DNA of 64,000 nucleotides, from contig NZ_JAJJMM010000001.1 of assembly GCF_020905295.1 (NCBI RefSeq), positions 1,798,001-1,862,000 on the forward strand, in the 5' to 3' direction. This document shows positions 31,711 through 60,465 of the stretch, one piece after another (position 1 is the first letter of the stretch; each line of letters opens with the position of its first letter). The position numbers and the translations under genes were made by a program. The DNA is from Flavobacterium piscisymbiosum (GTDB lineage Bacteria; Bacteroidota; Bacteroidia; Flavobacteriales; Flavobacteriaceae). The notes beneath the pieces are model-generated. The model had not been told where the DNA came from, searched no databases, and saw only the letters and a list, made by a program, of their open reading frames with translations.

Positions 31711-31826
31711 GGGCTAAAGGAGATAGTCTGCTTTAGCATTTTTTAATGCCGAAATTTATCTTTCGGCATTCATAACGAACCATTTCATTATGAAGAGGTT
31801 GCAATCAGTTCAAATTTTTCCTCCGT
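31711..31826 (-). promoter_or_regulatory. Probable SAM-II riboswitch with inserted hairpins, metK leader
   Basis: Read on the minus strand, the leader holds the SAM-II hallmarks: a short P1 (GGAGG at 31824-31820 with CCTC at 31798-31795) enclosing ATTTGAACTGATTGCAA, which follows the conserved AUUUGA-C...UUGCA loop, and further on the conserved GCTAAAG (31737-31731) that would enter the loop as the pseudoknot strand. Two hairpins lie between them, TTCATAA...TTATGAA (31794-31769) and AATGCCGAAA...TTTCGGCATT (31770-31745). GCTAAAG can also pair with CTTTAGC (31719-31713), giving a competing stem followed by CCCTTTTT. The predicted transcript start (about 31830) is just before P1. Recognised by eye, so a covariance search is needed. 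Confidence 0.6.
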
Positions 31827-31835
31827 ATTCGGGTG

Positions 31836-31954: not shown

Positions 31955-31986
31955 TTTGGCTGATAAAAAAATAGTTCGCAAATTTG
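31955..31986 (+). promoter_or_regulatory. Putative promoter of the leader/TonB receptor transcript
   Basis: TTTG (31955-31958), 20 nt, CAAATTTG (31979-31986; seven of eight positions of TAnnTTTG if N is free). The predicted start at about 31992 is 15 nt before the leader-peptide ATG. Confidence 0.45.
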
Positions 31987-32006
31987 CCTCACGAAAATTA
32001 AAAAAA

Positions 32007-32075
32007 ATGAAATTTACAGTTTGCAATATGATGTCTTGTAAGATGCCGGAGTTCTCCGCAGAGACGCTATTGTAA
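32007..32075 (+). CDS. Cys/Met-rich attenuation leader peptide (TonB receptor)
   Basis: A 22-codon frame begins with ATG and carries the run VCNMMSCKM, i.e. two Cys and three Met codons in nine, then PEFSAETLL and TAA. It lies between a plausible promoter and the terminator at 32099-32129. GCAGAG near its end (32058-32063) is complementary to CTCTGC, the 5' arm of that terminator (32103-32108). A ribosome stalled at the Cys/Met codons would leave GCAGAG free to form this antiterminator; one that reads to the stop would cover it. This is the standard design of amino-acid attenuators, and I infer that it senses Cys- or Met-tRNA charging. Confidence 0.7.
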   Translation: MKFTVCNMMSCKMPEFSAETLL

Positions 32076-32098
32076 TTTTTTTTCAAAAATATAAATAG

Positions 32099-32129
32099 AA
32101 ACCTCTGCAGATAGCAGAGGTTTTTTTTT
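32099..32129 (+). terminator. Attenuator terminator before the TonB receptor gene
   Basis: ACCTCTGC pairs with GCAGAGGT over a 5-nt loop, followed by nine T's. It lies between the leader peptide and the receptor gene (ATG at 32194), so it must be read through for expression. Confidence 0.85.
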
Positions 32130-32193
32130 GTCCCGATAAAAAATAACTGCAAATACTTTTTAAGCCAAAACCACTAAATTAATCTTAAAAGCA

Positions 32194-35040
32194 ATGAAGA
32201 AAAATGTACTAATCGCTTTAGGTCTGCTCACGTTTTCAGGTGTTTATGCTCAGGAAAATAAAAAAGAACAGGATAGCCTGAAAAATAATGAATTGTCTGA
32301 AGTAACAATAGTAGGATCCAGAAGTAAAAATCGTGTAAAAACCGATGTCCCTGTTCCTGTAGATGTTTTTAATATTTCAGACATTACAAAAGGTTCTCCA
32401 CAAACAAGCGTAACTCAGATCTTAAATTACGTTGCACCTTCATTTACCAGTAACGCGACCTCTACCGCAGATGCTACAGATCACGTCGATCCGGCACAAT
32501 TAAGAGGTTTAGGCCCTGATCAGGTTTTGATATTAGTAAACGGTAAACGCAGGCATTCGAGCGCATTGGTAAACATAAACGGATCTCCGGGAAGAGGATC
32601 TGTTGGAACAGATTTAAATGCAATTCCGTCATTTGCTATCGAAAGAATCGAAGTTTTACGTGACGGTGCAGCAGCTCAATACGGTTCAGATGCTATCGCT
32701 GGGGTTATTAATATTGTACTGAAAAAGAATGCTGATTTTATCTCAGGAGGTATTCAATATGGTACCAATTTATCTTCGGGATCTAATAATTTTAAAGGCG
32801 GAGCTGACGGACAAACCGTACAAGTAGATTTAAACTACGGAACCTCTTTAGGTAAAGAAGGAAGTTTCCTGAATGTTACCGGAACTGCTGTAACCAGACA
32901 GGCAACAAGCAGAGCAGGAATTAGAAATAATGGAATTTTTAACGCTTATAATGCTGTAGAAAACAGAGCAGCTCAAAATGGTGTGGCTATCAATTCATTG
33001 TTCAGTAATATTAACAATACTTCAAATTCAGCGCAAATTATTAGCTCATTACAGCAATATGCACCACAAGTAAGTTACTTTACACCGGCACAGCAAACTG
33101 CAATTTCTTCTGCAACAACATTGGCTCAAATGCAAACGGCTTTGAATTTTGATGTTACTAATAATGAACTTGCTTACAGAGGTCAGGAAAGAAGTGATTA
33201 TAATATGAGTGTTGGTCAGTCAGAACTGGCTTCAGGACAACTATATTACAATACCAAATATCCTCTGTCTGATATTACATCTTTGTATTCTTTTGGTGGA
33301 GTTTCGTATAGAAACGGTAAATCTTATGCTTTCAACAGATTACCAAACGGTTCCGGTACTTTCACGCAAGTGTATGAAAACGGATTTTTACCGGAAATAG
33401 AATCGTCTATATTAGATGCTTCGGCAGCACTTGGAGTCACTACCAATATATTGGGTTTTGATACTGATTTAAGTACCAACCTGGGCTCAAACTCTTTTCA
33501 ATACGATGTAAACAATACCATCAATGCGACTTTAGGAGTAAATTCTCCTTCTAGTTTTGATGCTGGTAAAGTTTCATTTTTGCAAAGCACAACCAATTTA
33601 GATTTCAGTAAAAAGCTTGATGTTTTAGAAGGATTGAATGTTGCTTTTGGTGGAGAGTTCAGATATGAAAACTATCAGATTAAAGCAGGAGAAGAAGCTT
33701 CTTATGGATTGTATGATATAAACGGAAACATAGTTCCTGGAATTTTGCCAAGTAATTCACCTTTAATAGTAACAGACTTTTTTGGTAACAAGCGTGGCGC
33801 AGGAGCACAGGGATTCTCTGGGTTTCAACCATCTGATGCTAAAGAAAAAGACAGAAAAAGTGGTGCTGCTTATCTTGATTTAGAATTGAATGCCACTAAA
33901 AACTGGCTTTTGAACGGAGCTGTTCGTTATGAAAATTACTCAGATTTTGGAAGCACGGTTATCTTTAAATTAGCTTCTCTTTTAAAAATAAATGATAATA
34001 TCAACTGGAGAATTTCAGGACAAACGGGTTTTAGAGCGCCATCATTACAACAAAAATATTTTGAATCAAGTTCTACTCAGTTTATAAATGGAGCACCTTA
34101 TCAGGTAGGTTATTTTACAAATGATTCTCAGGCCGCAAAAAGCATTGGGGTTGAAAGTCTAAAACCTGAAAAATCTAAAAGTATTAGTACAGGATTTACA
34201 TTTAAAATTCCTGATGCCAATATTACCATTGCAACCGATGCCTACTTTACAAGAATCGATGACAGAGTGGTGCTTACTGGACAATATTCAAGACCAACAG
34301 ATGCTCAGATAAATGCAGCTACATCTGCTACACAAAAAGATGCATTGACATTGTTTCAACAAGCATTTGATTTAAAAGGAGTGGAAAGAGCTTCGTTCTG
34401 GACCAACGGAATCGATTCTGAAACAAAAGGTATAGATGTGGTGATTTCTCAAAAATACGATGTAATCCAGGATTTTACCATCAGAAATGATTTTGCTTTA
34501 AGTTATAATACAACCAAAAGAGTAGGGAAATTAAATGTTCCTCAGTCTATTATCGATGCAGGTGGAGATCCTTATGTATATTCATTTTTCCCGGAATCAA
34601 GCAGAGTTTATTTAGAAGAAGCGATTCCTAAATTGAAAGCGAATTTAATGACAACATTCAGTATTAAAAAACTGGATATTTATTTAAGAAACAGTTATTT
34701 CGGAAAAGTGACTGATCCGGGTGCGACAGATGTAAATTTAGACGGATCATCTTCAGTTTATGAGCATCCGGAATACAGCGCAAAAATTGTTACCGATTTA
34801 TCTTTAGGATATCAAATCAATGAGAAATTCAGATTTACAATTGGTCTTAATAATATAGGAGATGTTTATCCGGATAGAAATAATCCGTCAACTCCGGCAT
34901 TTACCAATACAACGCCAACATTGTCTCCTGCGCCAAGTACAGATTTGACGAATGCAAATCAGTTTGCTTATTCAAGAGCAGTATCACAATTTGGATTGAA
35001 CGGAAGATTTGGTTTCGCCAGATTAAGTTTTAAATTTTAA
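32194..35040 (+). CDS. TonB-dependent outer-membrane receptor under Cys/Met attenuation
   Basis: A 948-residue TonB-dependent receptor. A signal peptide (MKKNVLIALGLLTFSGVYAQ) is followed by a TonB-box-like stretch (LSEVTIVGSRSKNR), the plug domain (LNYVAPSFTSNATS, QLRGLGPDQVLILVNGKRR, IPSFAIERIEVLRDGAAAQY, GSDAIAGVINIVLKK) and a 22-strand-type barrel ending FGFARLSFKF. There is no carboxypeptidase-like N-terminal domain, unlike SusC proteins. The ligand cannot be read from the sequence, but the gene is controlled by a leader peptide rich in Cys and Met codons and lies in a sulfur-metabolism region, so a sulfur compound or a cofactor of methionine synthesis (such as cobalamin) is a fair inference. 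No SusD-like partner is adjacent. Confidence 0.92.
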   Translation: MKKNVLIALGLLTFSGVYAQENKKEQDSLKNNELSEVTIVGSRSKNRVKTDVPVPVDVFNISDITKGSPQTSVTQILNYVAPSFTSNATSTADATDHVDPAQLRGLGPDQVLILVNGKRRHSSALVNINGSPGRGSVGTDLNAIPSFAIERIEVLRDGAAAQYGSDAIAGVINIVLKKNADFISGGIQYGTNLSSGSNNFKGGADGQTVQVDLNYGTSLGKEGSFLNVTGTAVTRQATSRAGIRNNGIFNAYNAVENRAAQNGVAINSLFSNINNTSNSAQIISSLQQYAPQVSYFTPAQQTAISSATTLAQMQTALNFDVTNNELAYRGQERSDYNMSVGQSELASGQLYYNTKYPLSDITSLYSFGGVSYRNGKSYAFNRLPNGSGTFTQVYENGFLPEIESSILDASAALGVTTNILGFDTDLSTNLGSNSFQYDVNNTINATLGVNSPSSFDAGKVSFLQSTTNLDFSKKLDVLEGLNVAFGGEFRYENYQIKAGEEASYGLYDINGNIVPGILPSNSPLIVTDFFGNKRGAGAQGFSGFQPSDAKEKDRKSGAAYLDLELNATKNWLLNGAVRYENYSDFGSTVIFKLASLLKINDNINWRISGQTGFRAPSLQQKYFESSSTQFINGAPYQVGYFTNDSQAAKSIGVESLKPEKSKSISTGFTFKIPDANITIATDAYFTRIDDRVVLTGQYSRPTDAQINAATSATQKDALTLFQQAFDLKGVERASFWTNGIDSETKGIDVVISQKYDVIQDFTIRNDFALSYNTTKRVGKLNVPQSIIDAGGDPYVYSFFPESSRVYLEEAIPKLKANLMTTFSIKKLDIYLRNSYFGKVTDPGATDVNLDGSSSVYEHPEYSAKIVTDLSLGYQINEKFRFTIGLNNIGDVYPDRNNPSTPAFTNTTPTLSPAPSTDLTNANQFAYSRAVSQFGLNGRFGFARLSFKF

Positions 35041-35054
35041 AAATATAAGATTGG

Positions 35055-35295
35055 CCCACGGGTTTTACGGATTTGAGCAGGTTTACACGGATTTTTTTAA
35101 TGCTTTAATTCTTTAATCAGTGACTTAACTTTTTATACAATCTGCTTCAGCTAAAATATGCCACAGATTAAAAATATTTACTCAGATTTTTTAATCATTT
35201 ATCCCGATAGCTATCGGGAGAGGCTAAATTTTTGAAACAATAGAAGAGGATAAAAAGAATCTGTGTAAACCCGTTTAATCCGTAAAACCCGTGGG
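35055..35295. repeat. Inverted repeat with 19-bp arms and central palindrome
   Basis: CCCACGGGTTTTACGGATT (35055-35073) recurs inverted at 35277-35295. Between them lies the 18-bp perfect palindrome TCCCGATAGCTATCGGGA (35202-35219). The arms continue with related ACACGGATT/AATCTGTGT words. The whole fills the gap after the TonB receptor gene and may act as its terminator or be a MITE-like repeat. Confidence 0.75.
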
Positions 35296-35365
35296 CTAAT
35301 CTATAAAGAGAAACACCACTATTTACAGGGCTTCGAAAAAAAATGTGTTAATTATCAATTTTTAA

Positions 35366-35398
35366 TTTGGTAGATCTAAAAATAGTTTATATATTTAC
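35366..35398 (+). promoter_or_regulatory. Putative promoter of the metY leader transcript
   Basis: TTTG, about 20 nt, TATATTTA (seven of eight positions of TAnnTTTG), followed at once by CTCTATCGAATTAGTCGAG (about 35399-35416), an imperfect inverted repeat that could be an operator at the transcript start. Confidence 0.4.
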
Positions 35399-35449
35399 TC
35401 TATCGAATTAGTCGAGTTTAAAAAAAGCAATTAATTTAAATAAAATAAA

Positions 35450-35530
35450 ATGAAAACAATAGCGAATAATATGATGATATGTTGTGAGATGATGCAAATG
35501 TGCATCCCAATTCGCTGTTGCCAAAAGTAA
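35450..35530 (+). CDS. Cys/Met-rich attenuation leader peptide (metY)
   Basis: A 26-codon frame from ATG to TAA contains five Cys (positions 11, 12, 18, 23, 24) and six Met (1, 8, 9, 14, 15, 17): NMMICCEMMQMC and IPIRCCQK. So extreme a content is not expected by chance. The last codons include CCAAAAG (35521-35527), complementary to CTTTTGG (35567-35573) in the 5' arm of the terminator that follows. A ribosome stalled at the inner Cys/Met codons would allow this antiterminator; full translation would block it. The small hairpin TTATAGTT/AACTATAA (35546-35563) lies between. I infer a Cys and/or Met attenuator for the following genes. Confidence 0.8.
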   Translation: MKTIANNMMICCEMMQMCIPIRCCQK

Positions 35531-35561
35531 AAGATGAAATCTTTGTTATAGTTAGAACTAT

Positions 35562-35598
35562 AAGCCCTTTTGGTAGCCATCCTAAAGGGCTTTTTTTT
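35562..35598 (+). terminator. Attenuator terminator before the metY genes
   Basis: AAGCCCTTT (35562-35570) pairs with AAAGGGCTT (35584-35592), then T's. The stem and its TTTTGGTA loop resemble the terminator of the sister module at 39043-39079. Confidence 0.85.
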
Positions 35599-35624
35599 AT
35601 TTCAACACTTTTAAATTTTATATT

Positions 35625-35819
35625 ATGAAAACATTAAACTCAATTGCAGTAGAATATTTATTGAGAAACGATTCTCAAAAAAACAATAATAAATCCGAAG
35701 ACATAACAAAAGAAGTTTCAAGACTAAATGCAGAACAAGCGGTAATAAGAAGTCAAAAATCATTGCTGCTCCTAATGTATAATCTTGAAGAAGAAGGAGA
35801 AGATTTTTTTATTCAATAA
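35625..35819 (+). CDS. Small protein of unknown function, attenuator-linked (copy 1)
   Basis: A 64-residue protein encoded between the Cys/Met attenuator and metY. No known motif, no Cys, no signal peptide; it is rich in Asn, Lys, Glu and Ser. Its C-terminus QKSLLLLMYNLEEEGEDFFI aligns with PNSLLFLMYSKENETLFI of the 66-residue protein at 39159, and both begin with M-x(1-2)-LN-I, so they seem to be distant paralogues in equivalent places. The DNA between it and metY (35820-35945) is AT-rich with repeated ATCAATTTCAATAACAAT-like words. It could be a small regulator or chaperone of the sulfur enzymes, or a decoy reading frame; function unknown. Confidence 0.6.
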   Translation: MKTLNSIAVEYLLRNDSQKNNNKSEDITKEVSRLNAEQAVIRSQKSLLLLMYNLEEEGEDFFIQ

Positions 35820-35945
35820 ATATAAATTCAATATCAATAACAATTTCAAAAATCAATTTTAATTGTGATTTCAAATAACGATTACAATCAGAAATCAATT
35901 TCAATAACAATATATAGTATTAACAATACCTAAAAAACTAAGATC

Positions 35946-37250
35946 ATGAGCACACAAAAATTCGCAACAAACGCACTACACGCAGGACACGATGTTACTA
36001 AAAATGCAGGAACCAGAGCAGTGCCTATTTATCAGACATCATCATATGTATTTAACGATTCAGATCACGCTGCCAATTTATTTGGTCTTGCCGAAGCCGG
36101 ATTTATTTACACAAGATTAAATAATCCAACAAACGATATTTTAGAACAACGACTGGCGGCACTCGAAGGCGGAATTGGAGCTGTAGTTACTGCATCCGGA
36201 GCATCGGCAATTTCTACAACATTATTGACCTTGCTAAAAGCGGGCGATCATATTGTGGCTTCGAATAGTTTATACGGAGGAACTTATAATTTGCTAAATG
36301 TAACTTTACCTCGTTTAGGCATTACAACCACTTTTGTAGCTCCTTCTAAACCTGAAAATTTTACAAAAGCAGCTAAAGAAAATACAAGAGCCTTTTTTGT
36401 AGAATCTTTAGGAAATCCAAAATTAGATGTATTAGACTTAAAAGGAATTTCGGCGGAAGCCAAAAACTTTAAAGTACCTTTTATTGTAGACAATACGGTT
36501 GCTACACCTTATTTATTGAATCCAATTGAGTACGGCGCAGATATCGTAATTCACTCTTTAACCAAATATATTTCAGGAAACGGAACTTCATTAGGAGGTG
36601 TTATTATAGATGCAGGAAAATTTGACTGGTCAAACGGAAAATTCCCTGAATTTACAGAACCTTCTGCAGGATATCACGGATTAGTGTATCATGAAGCTTT
36701 AGGAAATGCAGCTTTTATAGCAAAAGCAAGAATCGAAGGTTTACGTGATTTTGGCGCAGCTTTAAGTCCGTTTAATGCTTTTCAGATTATTCAGGGATTA
36801 GAAACTTTACCAATCCGAATCCAGAAACATAGCGAAAATGCTTTGGCTCTGGCCTCATGGTTAGAAAAACAAGATGAGGTAGTTTGGGTAAATTATCCAG
36901 GTCTTAAAAACAATAAATATTATGATTTAGCCCAACAATATTTACCAAAAGGACAAAGTGGCGTGATCACTTTTGGACTAAAAGGTGGTTTTGATGCCGC
37001 TAAAAAAGTGGTAGATCAGACTAAGTTGTTCTCGCTTTTGGCCAATATTGGTGATACAAAATCACTAATTATTCACCCGGCAAGTACAACGCACCAGCAA
37101 TTGTCTGATGCAGACCAACTGGAAACAGGAGTTTCAAAAGATTTAGTTCGACTTTCTGTCGGAATTGAAGATATCGAGGATTTAATAGCTGATTTGCAAG
37201 CCGCTTTCGCAAGCGTTACCCAATCGCAATACAGTATTAATAAAAATTAG
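35946..37250 (+). CDS. metY: O-acetylhomoserine sulfhydrylase
   Basis: A 434-residue PLP enzyme of the Cys/Met-metabolism family that makes homocysteine from O-acetylhomoserine and sulfide. Motifs: TNALHAGHDVTKNAGTRAVP, the substrate/PLP loop TRLNNPTNDILEQRLAALEGG, SGASAISTTLLTLLKAGDHI, VDNTVATPYLLNPIEYGADI, and the PLP Lys in HSLTKYISGNGTSLGG. The length and the GNGTSLGG loop fit MetY rather than the shorter cystathionine synthases. It uses the product of MetX (39729) and sulfide from the cys operon. Control through the Cys/Met attenuator at 35450-35598 would couple it to supply of its end products. Confidence 0.93.
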   Translation: MSTQKFATNALHAGHDVTKNAGTRAVPIYQTSSYVFNDSDHAANLFGLAEAGFIYTRLNNPTNDILEQRLAALEGGIGAVVTASGASAISTTLLTLLKAGDHIVASNSLYGGTYNLLNVTLPRLGITTTFVAPSKPENFTKAAKENTRAFFVESLGNPKLDVLDLKGISAEAKNFKVPFIVDNTVATPYLLNPIEYGADIVIHSLTKYISGNGTSLGGVIIDAGKFDWSNGKFPEFTEPSAGYHGLVYHEALGNAAFIAKARIEGLRDFGAALSPFNAFQIIQGLETLPIRIQKHSENALALASWLEKQDEVVWVNYPGLKNNKYYDLAQQYLPKGQSGVITFGLKGGFDAAKKVVDQTKLFSLLANIGDTKSLIIHPASTTHQQLSDADQLETGVSKDLVRLSVGIEDIEDLIADLQAAFASVTQSQYSINKN

Positions 37251-37344
37251 GTTTTTTTGTTTTTTGTTTGAAAAATTGCCTTTAGTAGCGTGAGTTCTGC
37301 TAGAGGTGATTTTTTATAAAAAACTATCAATATAAAAGTTTTTT

Positions 37345-37427
37345 ACCATATAAGTGATATAAGTTCCTATTAAGCGTTGCGCTAAGTTTCAGCTCTTTCT
37401 TAAAATTACTTATATCACTTATATGGT
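37345..37427. repeat. Inverted repeat with perfect 20-bp arms
   Basis: ACCATATAAGTGATATAAGT (37345-37364) is exactly inverted at 37408-37427. The 43-bp middle is AAGCGTTGCGC-like. A decayed relative is at 46780-46868. It looks like a MITE-like or REP-like element between metY and the homoserine-dehydrogenase-like gene and may form a transcript hairpin. Confidence 0.8.
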
Positions 37428-37454
37428 TTAATTAACCCCCAAAAAATTAAAATT

Positions 37455-38543
37455 ATGTCAAAGCTTAAAATAAATATCATCCTTTTTGGAATTGGAAATA
37501 TAGGAAGTACTTTGATCAATCAGATTATCGAAAGTCAGGAGTTTTTTCTCGAAAGTAAAAACATCGATTTTCATTTTCCTATTATAACCAATTCAACAGT
37601 TGCTTTTTTCGAGAAAGAAGGCGTAGGATATGCCTGGGAAACCAATTTCTTAGAATTGGCTGTTCCGTTTAAAGTGCAGGATATTATTGAATTTGCCAAA
37701 GAAAACGAATTTGAGAACTTAATAGCCGTTGATGCTACAGCAAGCGACGAGCTCATTCATCATTACAATACTTTGATCGAAAACGGATTTAATATTGTAG
37801 CGGTAAATAAAAAAGCCAATACACTGCCCATTGATTTGTATAAAGAAATCAGGGCAAATCTTAAAAAATACGACAAAGAATTTTTGTATGAAACATCTGT
37901 AGATACGGGTTTTCCGGTATTGCAAACCTTGAGAGATTTGTATTATTCGGGAGAAAAAATTACCAAGATACGAGGTGTTTTCTCTGATAATCTCAGTTAT
38001 GTCTTTAATCGTTTTGCGAATGAAGAAGCTACTTTTTCATCTCTTTTAAAAGATGCCAGTTTACTCGGATTAATGAGATCTACTTTTAAAGAAGATTTAT
38101 CGGGAAATGATACCGCAAGGAAACTATTGATTCTGACGAGGGAAATTGGGAAGGATTTTGATTTCTCTGATATAAAAATCAATTCGCTTATCACAGAAGA
38201 ACATCTGCAGAAAAACGGAATTCTTAATAAAGATGCCATCGACAAATCATTTAAAATTGCCAAAATAACCCAGGCAGACAATCATGTACTGAGATATGTA
38301 GGCGAATTTGATTTGCAGAAAAATACCCTGGAAGTCAAATTAGTTTCAGAACCAGTTTGGTCAGCCATAGGTCAGCTAAAAGGGTCAGATACCATTTTCG
38401 AAATCTACACACAATCGTATGCAGATGTTCCAATAGCAATTCAAAGCGCTTCGGCATGTAAGCAGGCCATTTCAAGAGGGATAATAACTGACATTTTAAA
38501 AGTAGCCGAGAAAATTAAAAATAAAGAAGCAGTTTGGCTGTAA
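37455..38543 (+). CDS. Diverged homoserine dehydrogenase-like protein
   Basis: A 362-residue stand-alone homoserine dehydrogenase homologue, similar to the C-terminal half of ThrA at 40720. The NAD(P)-binding N-terminus (NIILFGIGNIGSTLINQI) and the Lys motif (VAVNKKANTL) are kept, as are KEDLSGNDTARKLLIL with its Asp and Lys. Other hallmarks are lost: GAGLP is VDTGFP, GVFSGTLSY is GVFSDNLSY, and GYTEPDPREDL is GLMRSTFKEDL, so the substrate-binding Glu of TEPDP is gone. It may have another substrate, be a regulator, or be inactive. It lies 204 bp after metY beyond the inverted repeat at 37345 and may be read from the same transcript. Confidence 0.85.
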   Translation: MSKLKINIILFGIGNIGSTLINQIIESQEFFLESKNIDFHFPIITNSTVAFFEKEGVGYAWETNFLELAVPFKVQDIIEFAKENEFENLIAVDATASDELIHHYNTLIENGFNIVAVNKKANTLPIDLYKEIRANLKKYDKEFLYETSVDTGFPVLQTLRDLYYSGEKITKIRGVFSDNLSYVFNRFANEEATFSSLLKDASLLGLMRSTFKEDLSGNDTARKLLILTREIGKDFDFSDIKINSLITEEHLQKNGILNKDAIDKSFKIAKITQADNHVLRYVGEFDLQKNTLEVKLVSEPVWSAIGQLKGSDTIFEIYTQSYADVPIAIQSASACKQAISRGIITDILKVAEKIKNKEAVWL

Positions 38544-38652
38544 GTGGTTTCGAATAGTAGTTAGTTGTTCTTTGATATAATGAAACAGGAAAGTTCATTA
38601 CGTATTTTTTTGTAGGTTTTAACGCTTATATTTTTAAATCTTAAATTTGTAA

Positions 38653-38689
38653 GATGTTTTTTAACGTTAAAATGATGTTTTTTAACGTT
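38653..38689. repeat. Direct repeat GATGTTTTTTAACGTT, 21-bp period
   Basis: The 16-mer GATGTTTTTTAACGTT occurs at 38653-38668 and 38674-38689, exactly two helical turns apart, each with a TTAACGTTA/AACGTT palindrome core. It lies upstream of the possible promoter at 38717-38747, where an activator would bind. The rest of the gap 38544-38908 shows only that promoter. Confidence 0.6.
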
Positions 38690-38716
38690 TTTTAGGATTA
38701 ATTTGCTGATCCTCAC

Positions 38717-38747
38717 TTGCATAATTGAAAAAATATTCGCACATTTG
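38717..38747 (+). promoter_or_regulatory. Putative promoter of the second attenuator module
   Basis: TTG (38717-38719), 20 nt, CACATTTG (38740-38747), a near-match to TAnnTTTG with C at the first position, as in the putative promoter at 31955-31986. A GTCGATCGGGAC partial palindrome at 38800-38811 lies downstream and could be an operator. Confidence 0.4.
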
Positions 38748-38944
38748 TAATACCTCAAAATTACCAGAAAAATAAACTTAATATTCTGAAAATAGTTATG
38801 TCGATCGGGACAAAAGTTGAAACAACTTTATTTCTTAATTGATTTAAAAAAAGAAGATAAAAGTAAAATATTTCGGCAGTTTCCGGGAAGCTTATTAAAA
38901 TAAAACAAATGCAAGAATTTTTTAAAATAGCAAGTAAATCCAAG

Positions 38945-39010
38945 ATGAATAAATCCCTACAGATGAACAAGATGTTTAACGTCGCACGTATTTGTGTACG
39001 CGTCTGTTGA
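38945..39010 (+). CDS. Cys-codon attenuation leader peptide (metX region)
   Basis: A 21-codon frame from ATG to TGA ends in VARICVRVC, with Cys at 17 and 21, and holds three Met in its first ten residues; an in-frame ATG at 38909 could extend it to 33 codons. CTAAAAG (39013-39019), just past the stop, can pair with CTTTTGG (39048-39054; one G-U pair) in the 5' arm of the terminator at 39043-39079. A small hairpin TAAGTT/AACTTA (39026-39043) lies between, as in the metY module. The layout matches the modules at 32007 and 35450. Cys codons at the very end suggest Cys-tRNA sensing. Confidence 0.65.
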   Translation: MNKSLQMNKMFNVARICVRVC

Positions 39011-39042
39011 TACTAAAAGTATATATAAGTTGTATAAAACTT

Positions 39043-39079
39043 AAACCCTTTTGGTATTGTGATCCAAAAGGGTTTTTTT
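39043..39079 (+). terminator. Attenuator terminator of the metX region
   Basis: AAACCCTTTTGG (39043-39054) pairs with CCAAAAGGGTTT (39064-39075) and ends in seven T's. Nearly the same stem as the metY attenuator. Confidence 0.9.
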
Positions 39080-39158
39080 ATTCCATTTGGTTGCCATAAC
39101 AAAAAATTAAACAAATAATAAAGATTATAAAACGCAAACTAACATAAACTTAAATATC

Positions 39159-39359
39159 ATGAGCAAATTAAACTACATAACAAGAACATTTTCTACTTTG
39201 AAAAACTTAAGAGCTAAAAGAAACAATCCGCCGCCAGCAAATGAATTGGTACACCCAAGATTTGGAATCACGGAGGCTGATAAAATAGCAGAAAAAAAAG
39301 AACCAAATTCATTATTGTTTTTGATGTATTCAAAAGAAAATGAAACACTTTTTATCTAA
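39159..39359 (+). CDS. Small protein of unknown function, attenuator-linked (copy 2)
   Basis: A 66-residue basic protein between the second Cys attenuator and the SAM-I riboswitch of metX. Features: KLNYITRTFSTLKNLRAKRN, a Pro stretch (NPPPANELVHP), and a C-terminus PNSLLFLMYSKENETLFI that aligns with the small protein at 35625. No Cys, no membrane segment. Finding the same ending in the same position of two separately regulated sulfur modules argues that it is a real gene family. I do not recognise it. Confidence 0.6.
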   Translation: MSKLNYITRTFSTLKNLRAKRNNPPPANELVHPRFGITEADKIAEKKEPNSLLFLMYSKENETLFI

Positions 39360-39488
39360 ATCAAAAAGTATCATAAAATAGGGGAATACCTGCTTAATTT
39401 TACTGGGCAAATTGTTCGGTAATTTTTTGCGTACAATAGTTTTTGGTTGAATTATGTTTAAGAAATTAAGCAATCAGTTTCGATAAAA

Positions 39489-39520: not shown

Positions 39521-39550
39521 CACCTTTAAGTTCAAACACGTATTGAAAAT

Positions 39551-39655
39551 GTTATAAAGAAAGGACGAGGGATTAGACCCGATGAATCCTTAGCAACCCT
39601 TCGTTAAATCGAAGAAGGTGCTGCATTCTACCACGCCCAAACGTGGAAAGATAAC
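39551..39655 (+). promoter_or_regulatory. SAM-I riboswitch, metX leader
   Basis: The S-box core is clear: P1 GTTAT (39551) with ATAAC (39651), GAAAGGACGAGGGATTAGAC, then CCGATGAATCCTTAGCAACC, the P3 hairpin TTCG...CGAA, AAGGTGCTGCATTCTACC and the P4 hairpin CCACG..CGTGG followed by GAAAGATAAC. It lies 73 nt before metX. A pyrimidine run CTTTCTTT (39685-39692) is complementary to AAAGAAAG (39556-39563) at the aptamer start, a possible switch helix. High SAM should lower expression of metX and thrA. Confidence 0.93.
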
Positions 39656-39728
39656 AACAAGAATTTTCTAGTTTCACTCTAGTACTTTCTTTCTAATATT
39701 TCCACATACAAATCAATAATAAAAAGAT

Positions 39729-46356: not shown

Positions 46357-46767
46357 GTGCTTTCAAAGAAAACAAAATACGGCATTAAGGCTTTAACTTA
46401 TTTGGCTAGACGTGAAAATAATGAACCTGTACAAATTGCCGAAATTGCTAAAAGTGAACATATTTCGATTAAATTCTTAGAAAGTATATTATTACTGCTT
46501 AGAAATTCTGGTTTCCTGGGAGCAAAAAAAGGTAAAGGCGGAGGTTATTATCTGATAAAAGATCCCAAAGATATCAGTATGGCTAAAGTGTACCGTATTC
46601 TAGAAGGTCCAATTGCTTTGCTGCCTTGTGCAAGTCATAATTTTTATGAAAGATGCGATGATTGCGATGACGAAACTACTTGTGCAGCAAGACGTTTAAT
46701 GATGGAAGTTCGTGATAATACTTTAAAAATATTAGAAAGTAATTCTTTGGCAGATATTGCGTTTTAA
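46357..46767 (+). CDS. Rrf2-family transcriptional regulator
   Basis: A 136-residue Rrf2 protein. The winged helix is seen in LSKKTKYGIKALTYLARREN, QIAEIAKSEHISIKFLESIL and LRNSGFLGAKKGKGGGYYL. Near the C-terminus four Cys (91, 100, 103, 109) form C-x8-C-x2-C-x5-C, unlike the three of IscR but suitable for a metal or Fe-S site or redox sensing. The start is GTG at 46357. Its place between methionine and sulfate-reduction genes points to a CymR-like role as a repressor of sulfur genes; candidate sites are 31924-31936 and 47921-47943. The 191-bp gap upstream has only AT-rich ATCTAAAATC repeats. Confidence 0.88.
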   Translation: MLSKKTKYGIKALTYLARRENNEPVQIAEIAKSEHISIKFLESILLLLRNSGFLGAKKGKGGGYYLIKDPKDISMAKVYRILEGPIALLPCASHNFYERCDDCDDETTCAARRLMMEVRDNTLKILESNSLADIAF

Positions 46768-58996: not shown

Positions 58997-59019
58997 CCCT
59001 GTTCTTAAAATTATTGAAA

Positions 59020-59130
59020 GTTATCACGAAAGGCGGAGGGATAGACCCGATGAAACCTTAGCAACCCTTTATCTTAAAGAAGGTGCTAAATTCTACTTAA
59101 TACAAATTCATAGTATTTAAGATAGATAAC
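59020..59130 (+). promoter_or_regulatory. SAM-I riboswitch, metH leader
   Basis: P1 GTTATC (59020) with GATAAC (59125), GAAAGGCGGAGGGATAGACC, CGATGAAACCTTAGCAACCC, AAGAAGGTGCTAAATTCTAC, and P4 with CTTAATAC/GTATTTAAG. All are hallmarks of the S-box. It lies 330 nt before the metH N-terminal gene, farther than usual, because a repeat-like block lies between. Confidence 0.93.
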
Positions 59131-59227
59131 ACAAATACATAAAGTATTTCCCAAAACTCTTCCTGACAACCATACAATATTATTTTACTGAATTCAGTAT
59201 TATGAGCGAATCATTGACGCATTTTTT

Positions 59228-59460: not shown

Positions 59461-60465
59461 ATGGCAATAACAATTCAGGAAGCAATAAAAAAAAATATCC
59501 TAATCCTTGACGGAGCAATGGGAACAATGTTGCAGCGCTATAATTTCTCCGAAGAAGATTTTCGTGGAGAGCGTTTCAAGGATTTTCCGCATCCCTTAAA
59601 AGGAAACAACGATTTACTATCCATAACACAACCACAAGCAATTCGCGATGTTCACGCTGCTTATTACGAAGCCGGCGCAGACATCGTAGAAACCAATACT
59701 TTTTCAGGAACTACGATCGGTATGGCCGACTATTTCCTGGAAGATTTGGTTTACGAATTAAACTACGAATCGGCTAAAATTGCACGAGAAGTAGCCGATG
59801 AATTCACCGCTAAAAACCCAGACAAACCACGTTTTGTAGCTGGTTCAATCGGACCAACAAACCGTACGGCAAGTATGTCACCAGACGTAAATGATCCGGG
59901 TTATAGAGCCGTAACATTTGATGATTTGCGTATTGCCTACAAACAACAAGTAGAAGCTTTAATGGATGGTGGCTGCGATTTACTTTTGGTGGAAACCATT
60001 TTCGATACCTTAAATGCAAAAGCTGCACTTTTTGCAATCGAAGAAGTAAAAGACGAACGTAATCTTGATATTCCAATTATGGTTTCGGGAACGATTACCG
60101 ACGCATCAGGAAGAACACTTTCTGGACAGACGGTTGAAGCGTTTTTGATTTCGGTATCACATATTCCGTTATTGAGTGTTGGTTTCAATTGCGCTCTTGG
60201 AGCCGATTTATTGAAGCCATACTTGAAAACATTATCTCAGCATACACAATTCAACGTTTCGGCACACCCAAATGCAGGATTGCCAAACGCATTCGGGCAA
60301 TATGATGAAACGCCGGAACAAACTCAGGCTTTAATTAAGGAATATTTAGACGATAATTTAATCAACATAATTGGTGGTTGTTGCGGAACTACTCCGGATC
60401 ACATCAGATTAATTGCTGAAGTAGCGAAGGATTATAAGCCACGTGTGGCGCCAGTAATTGCATAA
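59461..60465 (+). CDS. metH: Methionine synthase, homocysteine-binding half (split MetH)
   Basis: A 334-residue protein equal to the N-terminal module of B12-dependent methionine synthase. Motifs: [83 protein letters not shown], and zinc ligands in [11 protein letters not shown] (Cys) and [14 protein letters not shown] (Cys-Cys). It binds homocysteine and zinc. The cobalamin, folate and activation modules are encoded by the gene at 61591, so MetH is split in two, as in other Flavobacteria. Expression is under the SAM-I riboswitch at 59020. Confidence 0.93.

What the first reader, a model, noticed from the sequence alone, without database searches (positions are those of the whole stretch)
31955..39360. 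Three parallel Cys/Met leader-peptide attenuators controlling sulfur genes
Three places in 7 kb (32007-32129, 35450-35598, 38945-39079) have the same layout: short ORF full of Cys and/or Met codons, a segment at its end complementary to the 5' arm of a terminator, the terminator, then a sulfur-related gene. The pairings are GCAGAG/CTCTGC, CCAAAAG/CTTTTGG and CTAAAAG/CTTTTGG. Amino-acid attenuation is well known for his, trp and leu operons; a set tuned to Cys and Met in Bacteroidota is not something I know as described. It would link tRNA charging to sulfur uptake (TonB receptor), MetY and the MetX region.
Basis: partly seen in the sequence, partly recalled or inferred. Interest (0 to 1): 0.92.

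Follow-up and report, generated by a model that had tools for sequence, protein, structure and literature searches.

The report
Cys/Met leader-peptide switches before sulfur genes
Three short reading frames rich in cysteine and methionine codons, each followed by a conserved stretch predicted to fold in either of two ways, lie upstream of a receptor gene and two methionine-synthesis genes in a Flavobacterium, and likely turn those genes up when charged cysteine or methionine tRNA runs short; similar leaders stand before sulfur genes in other families of the class.

Summary
Homologues (45, 44 and 31 aligned sequences, window included) keep the Cys/Met residues, while peptide ends shift frame or stop early in some, and both mutually exclusive helices are kept. 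The last free Cys/Met codon lies mostly 13-19 nt before the antiterminator arm, and in every counted row the stop codon would place a finishing ribosome over that arm. Upstream of metY, leaders and SAM-I exclude each other (54 leader, 24 SAM-I, 0 both, 2 neither, of 80 loci). Outside the family a detector finds Cys/Met leaders before a sulfite-reductase-like gene in 31 of 51 genomes (17 of 23 families) and before metY in 9 of 48 (5 of 23), before recA in 0 of 30, and before hisG in 3 of 30 (18 of 30 His-rich). No Rfam family reached threshold on the leaders examined. Most likely these are classical ribosome-mediated attenuators reading Cys and Met tRNA charging. The kind is known, and Cys versions exist in other phyla; the Cys+Met form, its breadth here, the tandem layout and the exchange with SAM-I were not described in what I could search. 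No expression data.

The parts
32007..32075 (+). leader ORF L1 (22 codons, 2 Cys + 3 internal Met)
   Evidence: 45 aligned sequences
32058..32063 (+). L1 antiterminator 5' arm GCAGAG
32097..32125 (+). L1 intrinsic terminator; CTCTGC 32103-32108 in its 5' arm also forms the antiterminator
32194..35040 (+). TonB-dependent receptor gene, substrate unknown
   Evidence: Pfam PF00593/PF07715; lies between L1 and L2 in 25 of 50 related loci that have both
35450..35530 (+). leader ORF L2 (26 codons, 5 Cys + 5 internal Met)
   Evidence: 44 aligned sequences
35518..35527 (+). L2 antiterminator 5' arm TTGCCAAAAG
35562..35592 (+). L2 intrinsic terminator; its 5' side also pairs with 35518-35527
35625..35819 (+). 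small ORF of 64 codons, no Pfam or NCBIfam match
35946..37250 (+). metY, O-acetylhomoserine sulfhydrylase
   Evidence: TIGR01326 646.4 bits, cut-off 495.1
37455..38543 (+). stand-alone homoserine dehydrogenase-like gene
   Evidence: PF00742
38909..39010 (+). leader ORF L3 (33 codons; alternative start 38945), 2 Cys + 3 internal Met
   Evidence: 31 aligned sequences
39010..39019 (+). L3 antiterminator 5' arm ATACTAAAAG, overlapping the last base of the stop codon
39043..39075 (+). L3 intrinsic terminator; its 5' side also pairs with 39010-39019
39159..39359 (+). small ORF of 66 codons; homologues are hypothetical proteins, of Flavobacterium where a genus is named
   Evidence: 64 of 150 genus genomes (own included); 191 homologues (120 listed)
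39549..39657 (+). SAM-I riboswitch in series after L3, before metX
   Evidence: RF00162 76.4 bits
39729..40718 (+). metX-like acyltransferase gene
   Evidence: TIGR01392 175.6 bits (below its equivalog cut-off of 500)

Best explanation
The three elements are predicted ribosome-mediated transcription attenuators in which a ribosome that stalls at Cys or Met codons, for want of charged tRNA, would leave the antiterminator arm free and so let transcription run on into the genes behind. When both amino acids are plentiful the ribosome would reach the stop codon, its footprint would cover the arm, the terminator hairpin would form and transcription would end. L1 and L2 are, judging by the relatives, a tandem pair that stood directly before metY; in the window's branch a TonB-receptor gene lies between them. 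L3 stands in series with a SAM-I riboswitch before metX, so that gene would read both tRNA charging and SAM. Shown: ORFs, codons, both pairings, spacing, conservation, gene association. Inferred: translation, stalling, response to Cys/Met, order of evolutionary events.
For: (1) Cys/Met columns: identity 0.87, 0.80 and 0.95 for L1, L2, L3 against 0.55, 0.56 and 0.77 for other columns; both Cys codons are used (TGT/TGC 55/32, 117/92, 47/23), so the residue is kept rather than the nucleotides. (2) Antiterminator helices: 98.5%, 84.9% and 97.1% of cells paired; one, eleven and three pairs with changes on both sides (the L2 figures include two small inner hairpins). Terminators of L1 and L2 99.7% and 98.5%. 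In 9 sequences of the Gillisia/Christiangramia group an A-U to C-G change in the L1 antiterminator goes with a matching U-A to G-C change in the terminator. (3) Folding: before the terminator 3' arm is made the antiterminator is the minimum-energy fold in 45/45, 43/44 and 31/31; with the first 25 nt shuffled 2.3, 5.6 and 3.0 are expected. The last 95 nt of the full leaders fold into the terminator in 45/45, 42/44 and 29/31. (4) Spacing: nearest Cys/Met codon at least 10 nt before the arm lies at 14-15 nt (L1, 45 of 45), 17 nt (L2, 31 of 41; three rows without a usable arm or ORF dropped) and 19 or 13 nt (L3, 29 of 31); the stop codon puts a ribosome over the arm in 45/45, 41/41 and 31/31. (5) metY upstream: 54 leader, 24 SAM-I, 0 both, 2 neither. 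(6) Outside the family: 31 of 51 reductase genes and 9 of 48 metY; reverse strand 0 and 1; recA 0 of 30, hisG 18 of 30 His-rich and 3 of 30 Cys/Met.
Against: No transcript, ribosome-profiling or growth data. 39 of 48 metY genes and 20 of 51 reductase genes outside the family show no leader by this detector, and the reductase gene of four Flavobacterium genomes has none (L225-L228). Compensatory changes are few independent events: for the L1 antiterminator the number of pairs with changes on both sides is no more than in shuffles (456 of 500 as high), and the one such pair changes in one clade; further pair types also do not exceed shuffles for L1 or the L2 terminator. For the 28 leaders outside the family examined, antiterminators are clear only as a group (mean longest complement 6.5 vs 5.5, 0 of 200 shuffle sets as high); many single ones are no better than chance. 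Three of 30 hisG upstreams pass the Cys/Met rule, so its false-positive rate is not zero. The detector was written by me after seeing the window, and its stem, length and codon thresholds differ between onwards.
Confidence: 0.88

Rival explanations
1. The leaders encode arrest peptides: the nascent Cys/Met-rich chain itself stalls the ribosome on sensing a small molecule or metal, and tRNA charging is not the signal.
For: L3 is conserved beyond its Cys/Met codons (other columns 0.77 identity); Cys/Met-rich peptides could bind metals (general knowledge).
Against: Peptide ends are not fixed: L022 and L031 read the end of L2 in another frame, L034 stops before the L1 arm, L038-L040 stop early. 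The Cys:Met make-up drifts: L073 L1 has no Cys, and the L192/L193/L195 leaders are Met-only. His-rich leaders in the same position before hisG follow the product amino acid.
Confidence: 0.06
2. The conserved RNA is a metabolite-binding riboswitch and the ORFs are incidental.
For: It takes the place of a SAM-I riboswitch before metY.
Against: No Rfam family reaches its threshold on the window leaders or in 20 related loci; below threshold, L1 shows only weak matches (Phe_leader 27.6 bits against 55, OmrA-B, PsrR1). Conservation follows codons upstream of the arm and pairing downstream; I saw no aptamer-like core, by eye only.
Confidence: 0.03
3. Terminators only end upstream transcription units, and the ORFs are chance.
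For: Intrinsic terminators are common between genes (general knowledge).
Against: 143 hits against 3 on the other strand in 1.0 Mb; shuffled upstreams give 0.15 on average where 9 of 33 (metY) and 12 of 26 (reductase) were observed; recA 0 of 30.
Confidence: 0.02

Closest known systems
Classical amino-acid attenuators (his, trp, leu, thr, phe operons, from general knowledge; Bacteroid-trp RF01692 in Bacteroidetes)
   Same: Leader ORF rich in the product's codons, mutually exclusive antiterminator and terminator, before a pathway gene.
   Different: Here two amino acids, Cys and Met, are read together. RF01692 was seen only as a table row of PMC2864571; the words cysteine and methionine do not occur in that main text (passages). 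That RF01692 is a leader-peptide attenuator is recalled.
Cysteine leader peptides of mycobacteria and Rhodobacterales (cys operon, cbs, cysS uORFC-8-2)
   Same: Runs of Cys codons before cysteine genes.
   Different: The actinobacterial candidates lack clear terminators (PMC1262725 passages); the cysS case in Rhodobacterales has two Cys codons, and its passage names no Met codons (PMC8632094). Other phyla.
SAM-I (S-box) riboswitch
   Same: Its consensus occupies the same place before metY in 24 of 80 loci.
   Different: Senses SAM by an aptamer; the window leaders show no SAM-I match, and the two are not found together before metY in the 80 loci.
Leader-peptide attenuation noted in Flavobacterium psychrophilum
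   Same: PMC9723704 reports 'strong clues' for leader-peptide attenuation before amino-acid operons (passage).
   Different: The main text does not contain the word methionine and has cysteine once, in another context; its supplement could not be read here, so overlap is possible.

Membership tests
Ribosome-mediated transcription attenuator | Short ORF with codons for the regulating amino acid | tested here: met
Ribosome-mediated transcription attenuator | Intrinsic terminator between ORF and gene | tested here: met
   (by sequence and folding, not by transcript)
Ribosome-mediated transcription attenuator | Mutually exclusive antiterminator sharing the terminator 5' arm | tested here: met
Ribosome-mediated transcription attenuator | Control codons upstream of the arm, stop codon so placed that a finishing ribosome masks it | tested here: met
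Ribosome-mediated transcription attenuator | Gene behind belongs to the pathway of the amino acid | tested here: met
   metY, metX-like, sulfite-reductase-like; not shown for the TonB receptor
Ribosome-mediated transcription attenuator | Leader is translated and read-through answers to charged tRNA | not testable with these tools
   needs ribosome profiling and reporters
Ribosome-mediated transcription attenuator | 1:2 pause/protector hairpin | not tested
   not examined
SAM-I / SAM-II riboswitch | Covariance match to the aptamer | tested here: not met
   leaders have no match; matches lie elsewhere (39549-39657, 59018-59132, 31723-31829 minus)
T-box | Covariance match to the T-box family | tested here: not met
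   no match in the window or in 20 related loci at the gathering score
Arrest peptide | Conserved residues near the stall site at the C-terminus | tested here: not met
   frame-shifted or truncated ends in L022, L031, L034, L038-L040; L3 is more uniform and does not speak against it

The most novel reading that the evidence does not exclude
A class-wide sulfur regulon of Bacteroidia works through leader peptides that read Cys and Met tRNA charging together; pairs of such gates in tandem multiply the response, and at metY the system has traded places with SAM riboswitches, so that one gene senses either SAM or the charged tRNAs, and metX in Flavobacterium senses both in series.
Probability: 0.5. 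Interest if true: 0.78.

Novelty: new variant of a known kind. Interest (0 to 1): 0.68.

Why it matters
How Bacteroidota control cysteine and methionine synthesis seems little described (my impression from the searches). If true, this predicts a regulon from sequence, gives two-input reporters (Cys and Met in one leader; L3 plus SAM-I in series), and offers a natural case of one sensor type replacing another at the same gene, which lets one ask why evolution picks tRNA charging over SAM. It also marks short ORFs before sulfur genes as functional.

Tried and rejected
More copies in the own genome: model R1 finds only L1 above 36 bits; R2 finds L2 (169), L3 (54.7) and L1 (44.9), and the next hit (36.6 bits, L127) looks like the terminator behind another gene. 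In the family search with R1, 200 of 249 genomes passed E 0.01, but the hits at about 35-41 bits look like generic terminators; I count only the 19 genomes at 55 bits or more, own included (strict filters). Of the 18 loci besides the own one, 15 hold metY, 2 metX, and 1, cut short, only metK. Of the 12 genomes outside the family that R2 hit at class level, five loci were read: two before metY, two before the reductase, one Met-rich leader before an OsmC-like gene, named by eye; seven were not read.

A class-wide metX search at E 1e-60 reached only 6 of 198 genomes and was not used for counts. A search for promoter boxes of the Bacteroidetes type (consensus recalled) was inconclusive. The 66-codon protein has no known family and was left at that. 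The window's cys cluster (46-55 kb) shows no Cys/Met leader by the detector.

Dropped rows and choices: the L1/L2 sets were typed by hand, with a SAM-I regular expression, not Rfam; L191 (short upstream); own-family loci L187-L190 and L225-L228 left out of the outside-family counts; G608 and G501:C54 (partial matches) and G322 not fetched; three L2 rows dropped. One search counted two reductase ORFs twice (L266, L273), so its 43 leaders and 11 tandems are 41 and 10; the 31 genomes stand. One leader (L285) was read through N letters. Only 30 of 98 hisG and 30 of 215 recA matches were examined, with about 590 nt upstream instead of 550.
Full report
What is there. The window lies in a genome (handle G000) whose nearest named relatives are Flavobacterium species. 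Between a divergent metK (with a SAM-II match) and metX-like/thrA genes stand three short ORFs rich in Cys and Met codons, each overlapping or ending beside a segment that can pair with the 5' arm of the intrinsic terminator that follows. The pairings are longer than first noted: L2 and L3 can form 10-bp antiterminators, and L1 has six outer pairs plus an inner helix. Order: L1, TonB receptor; L2, 64-codon ORF, metY, homoserine dehydrogenase-like gene; L3, 66-codon ORF, SAM-I riboswitch, metX-like gene, thrA.

Is it chance? No. Binomial tails for Cys+Met content are 2.6e-6, 6e-14 and 2.3e-5 against nine window proteins, and 3.3e-4, 1.3e-9 and 2.5e-3 against an assumed 3%. In 80 related loci (1.0 Mb) a simple detector reports 143 hits on the coding strand and 3 on the other; all but 8 of the 143 match a loose L1-L3 peptide pattern.

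Conservation. 45 (L1), 44 (L2) and 31 (L3) sequences were aligned, window included; the L1 and L2 sets reach Gillisia, Salinimicrobium, Christiangramia and Salegentibacter. Cys/Met columns are better conserved than the others, and Cys positions use both codons. Past the control codons the peptide is freer: L022 and L031 shift frame, L034 stops before the arm, L038-L040 stop early, while the RNA segment stays. Paired cells: L1 antiterminator 98.5%, terminator 99.7%; L2 84.9% (with two small inner hairpins) and 98.5%; L3 antiterminator 97.1%, the L3 terminator not counted. All exceed their 500 shuffles and slid controls in percentage paired and covariation score. The counts of pairs changed on both sides are weaker: for L1 no more than shuffles, for L2 and L3 antiterminators above nearly all or all shuffles (2 of 500 and 0 of 500 as high). 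The L1 change of A-U to C-G in 9 sequences is probably one event in one clade.

Folding and spacing. Before the terminator's 3' arm exists the antiterminator is the minimum-energy fold in 45/45, 43/44 and 31/31 leaders, against 2.3, 5.6 and 3.0 expected when the first 25 nt are shuffled; the last 95 nt of the full leaders fold into the terminator in 45/45, 42/44 and 29/31. The last Cys/Met codon at least 10 nt before the arm lies at 14-15 nt (L1), mostly 17 nt (L2) and mostly 19 or 13 nt (L3), and the stop codon puts a ribosome over the arm in 45 of 45, 41 of 41 and 31 of 31 rows (a footprint of about -17 to +14 nt from the A site is general knowledge; three L2 rows dropped). This is what stalling-dependent antitermination needs.

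A sensor exchanged. Of 80 loci around metY, 50 carry L1 and L2, 2 only L1, 2 only L2, 24 a SAM-I consensus, none both; of the 2 with neither, L065 has only 182 nt upstream and L079 looks SAM-II-like by eye. In 25 of the 50 the TonB receptor lies between L1 and L2; in the rest no TonB match lies between them. The other genera with leaders have the adjacent form, so insertion in the Flavobacterium branch is the likelier direction (inference). The 36 loci with an L3 each carry a SAM-I consensus between L3 and metX. Several species have a further L1-like element before L3, and two Gillisia loci have a leader-like element before a gene that looks like homoserine dehydrogenase (by eye).

Breadth. 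A covariance model of L2 led to leaders in other families of the class; five of twelve such loci were read. Without the model, the upstreams of a sulfite/nitrite reductase gene and of metY were then examined: leaders in 31 of 51 genomes (17 of 23 families) and 9 of 48 (5 of 23), reverse strand 0 and 1. Tandem pairs occur in 10 and 4 of these. Shuffles of the first subset (26 and 33) gave 0.15 on average each against 12 and 9. Controls: recA 0 of 30; hisG 18 of 30 His-rich and 3 of 30 passing the Cys/Met rule (all three loci also have a His-rich ORF, in two of them the same ORF); reductase 1 of 51 His-rich, metY 0 of 48. Codons thus follow the pathway. The Cys share is somewhat higher before the reductase (164 Cys, 126 Met in 41 ORFs, none without Cys) than before metY (34, 50 in 13 ORFs, four without Cys), a trend only. 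The reductase is called sulfite reductase from Pfam NIR_SIR and from its place near cysH-, cysD- and cysN-like genes, named by eye; no NCBIfam equivalog cut-off is met.

Mechanism. Best reading: ribosome-mediated attenuation that reads charged Cys and Met tRNA. Shown: anatomy, conservation, pairing, spacing, gene association. Inferred: translation, stalling, direction of response, multiplication by tandem gates, and what the TonB receptor takes up.

What is known. Attenuation by leader peptide is classical; Bacteroid-trp is an Rfam family of Bacteroidetes (PMC2864571 passages; its mechanism recalled). Cys leaders are described in Actinobacteria and Rhodobacterales (PMC1262725, PMC8632094 passages; the mycobacterial experiments seen only as cited in PMC9094748 and PMC13236596 passages). 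A flavobacterial transcriptome paper reports clues for leader-peptide attenuation before amino-acid operons without the word methionine in the main text (PMC9723704 passages). Ten searches in an open-licence library listed no paper whose title, abstract start or passages I read describe Cys/Met leaders in Bacteroidota; several lists were capped (25 of 251, 25 of 42, 12 of 87), and subscription papers and supplements were not seen. No Rfam family reached its threshold on the window leaders or in 20 related loci.

Noticed in passing
window 35048-35302: A long inverted repeat (26-nt arms, 96% complementary, 203 nt apart) between the TonB receptor gene and L2; looks like a small repeat element.
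   Followed up: no
window 39159-39359 and 35625-35819: Two small ORFs (66 and 64 codons) directly behind the L3 and L2 terminators, with similar ends (SLLFLMYS.. and SLLLLMYN..). The first has 191 homologues, hypothetical proteins of Flavobacterium where a genus is named.
   Followed up: partly
window 59018-59132: Second SAM-I riboswitch, before a gene at 59461 that looks like methionine synthase (by eye).
   Followed up: no
window 31723-31829 (minus): SAM-II riboswitch before metK, so SAM-II, SAM-I and leader peptides stand within 8 kb.
   Followed up: no
L301-L330: His-rich leader peptides with terminators before hisG in 18 of 30 Bacteroidia loci: attenuation seems general in the class.
   Followed up: partly
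L017 8790-8975, L020, L022, L026, L032: A further L1-like element, poor in Cys/Met in L017-L026, just upstream of L3; I saw none in the window.
   Followed up: partly
window 46357-46767: Rrf2-family regulator gene beside the cys cluster (CymR model 78.5 bits, below its cut-off of 195).
   Followed up: no
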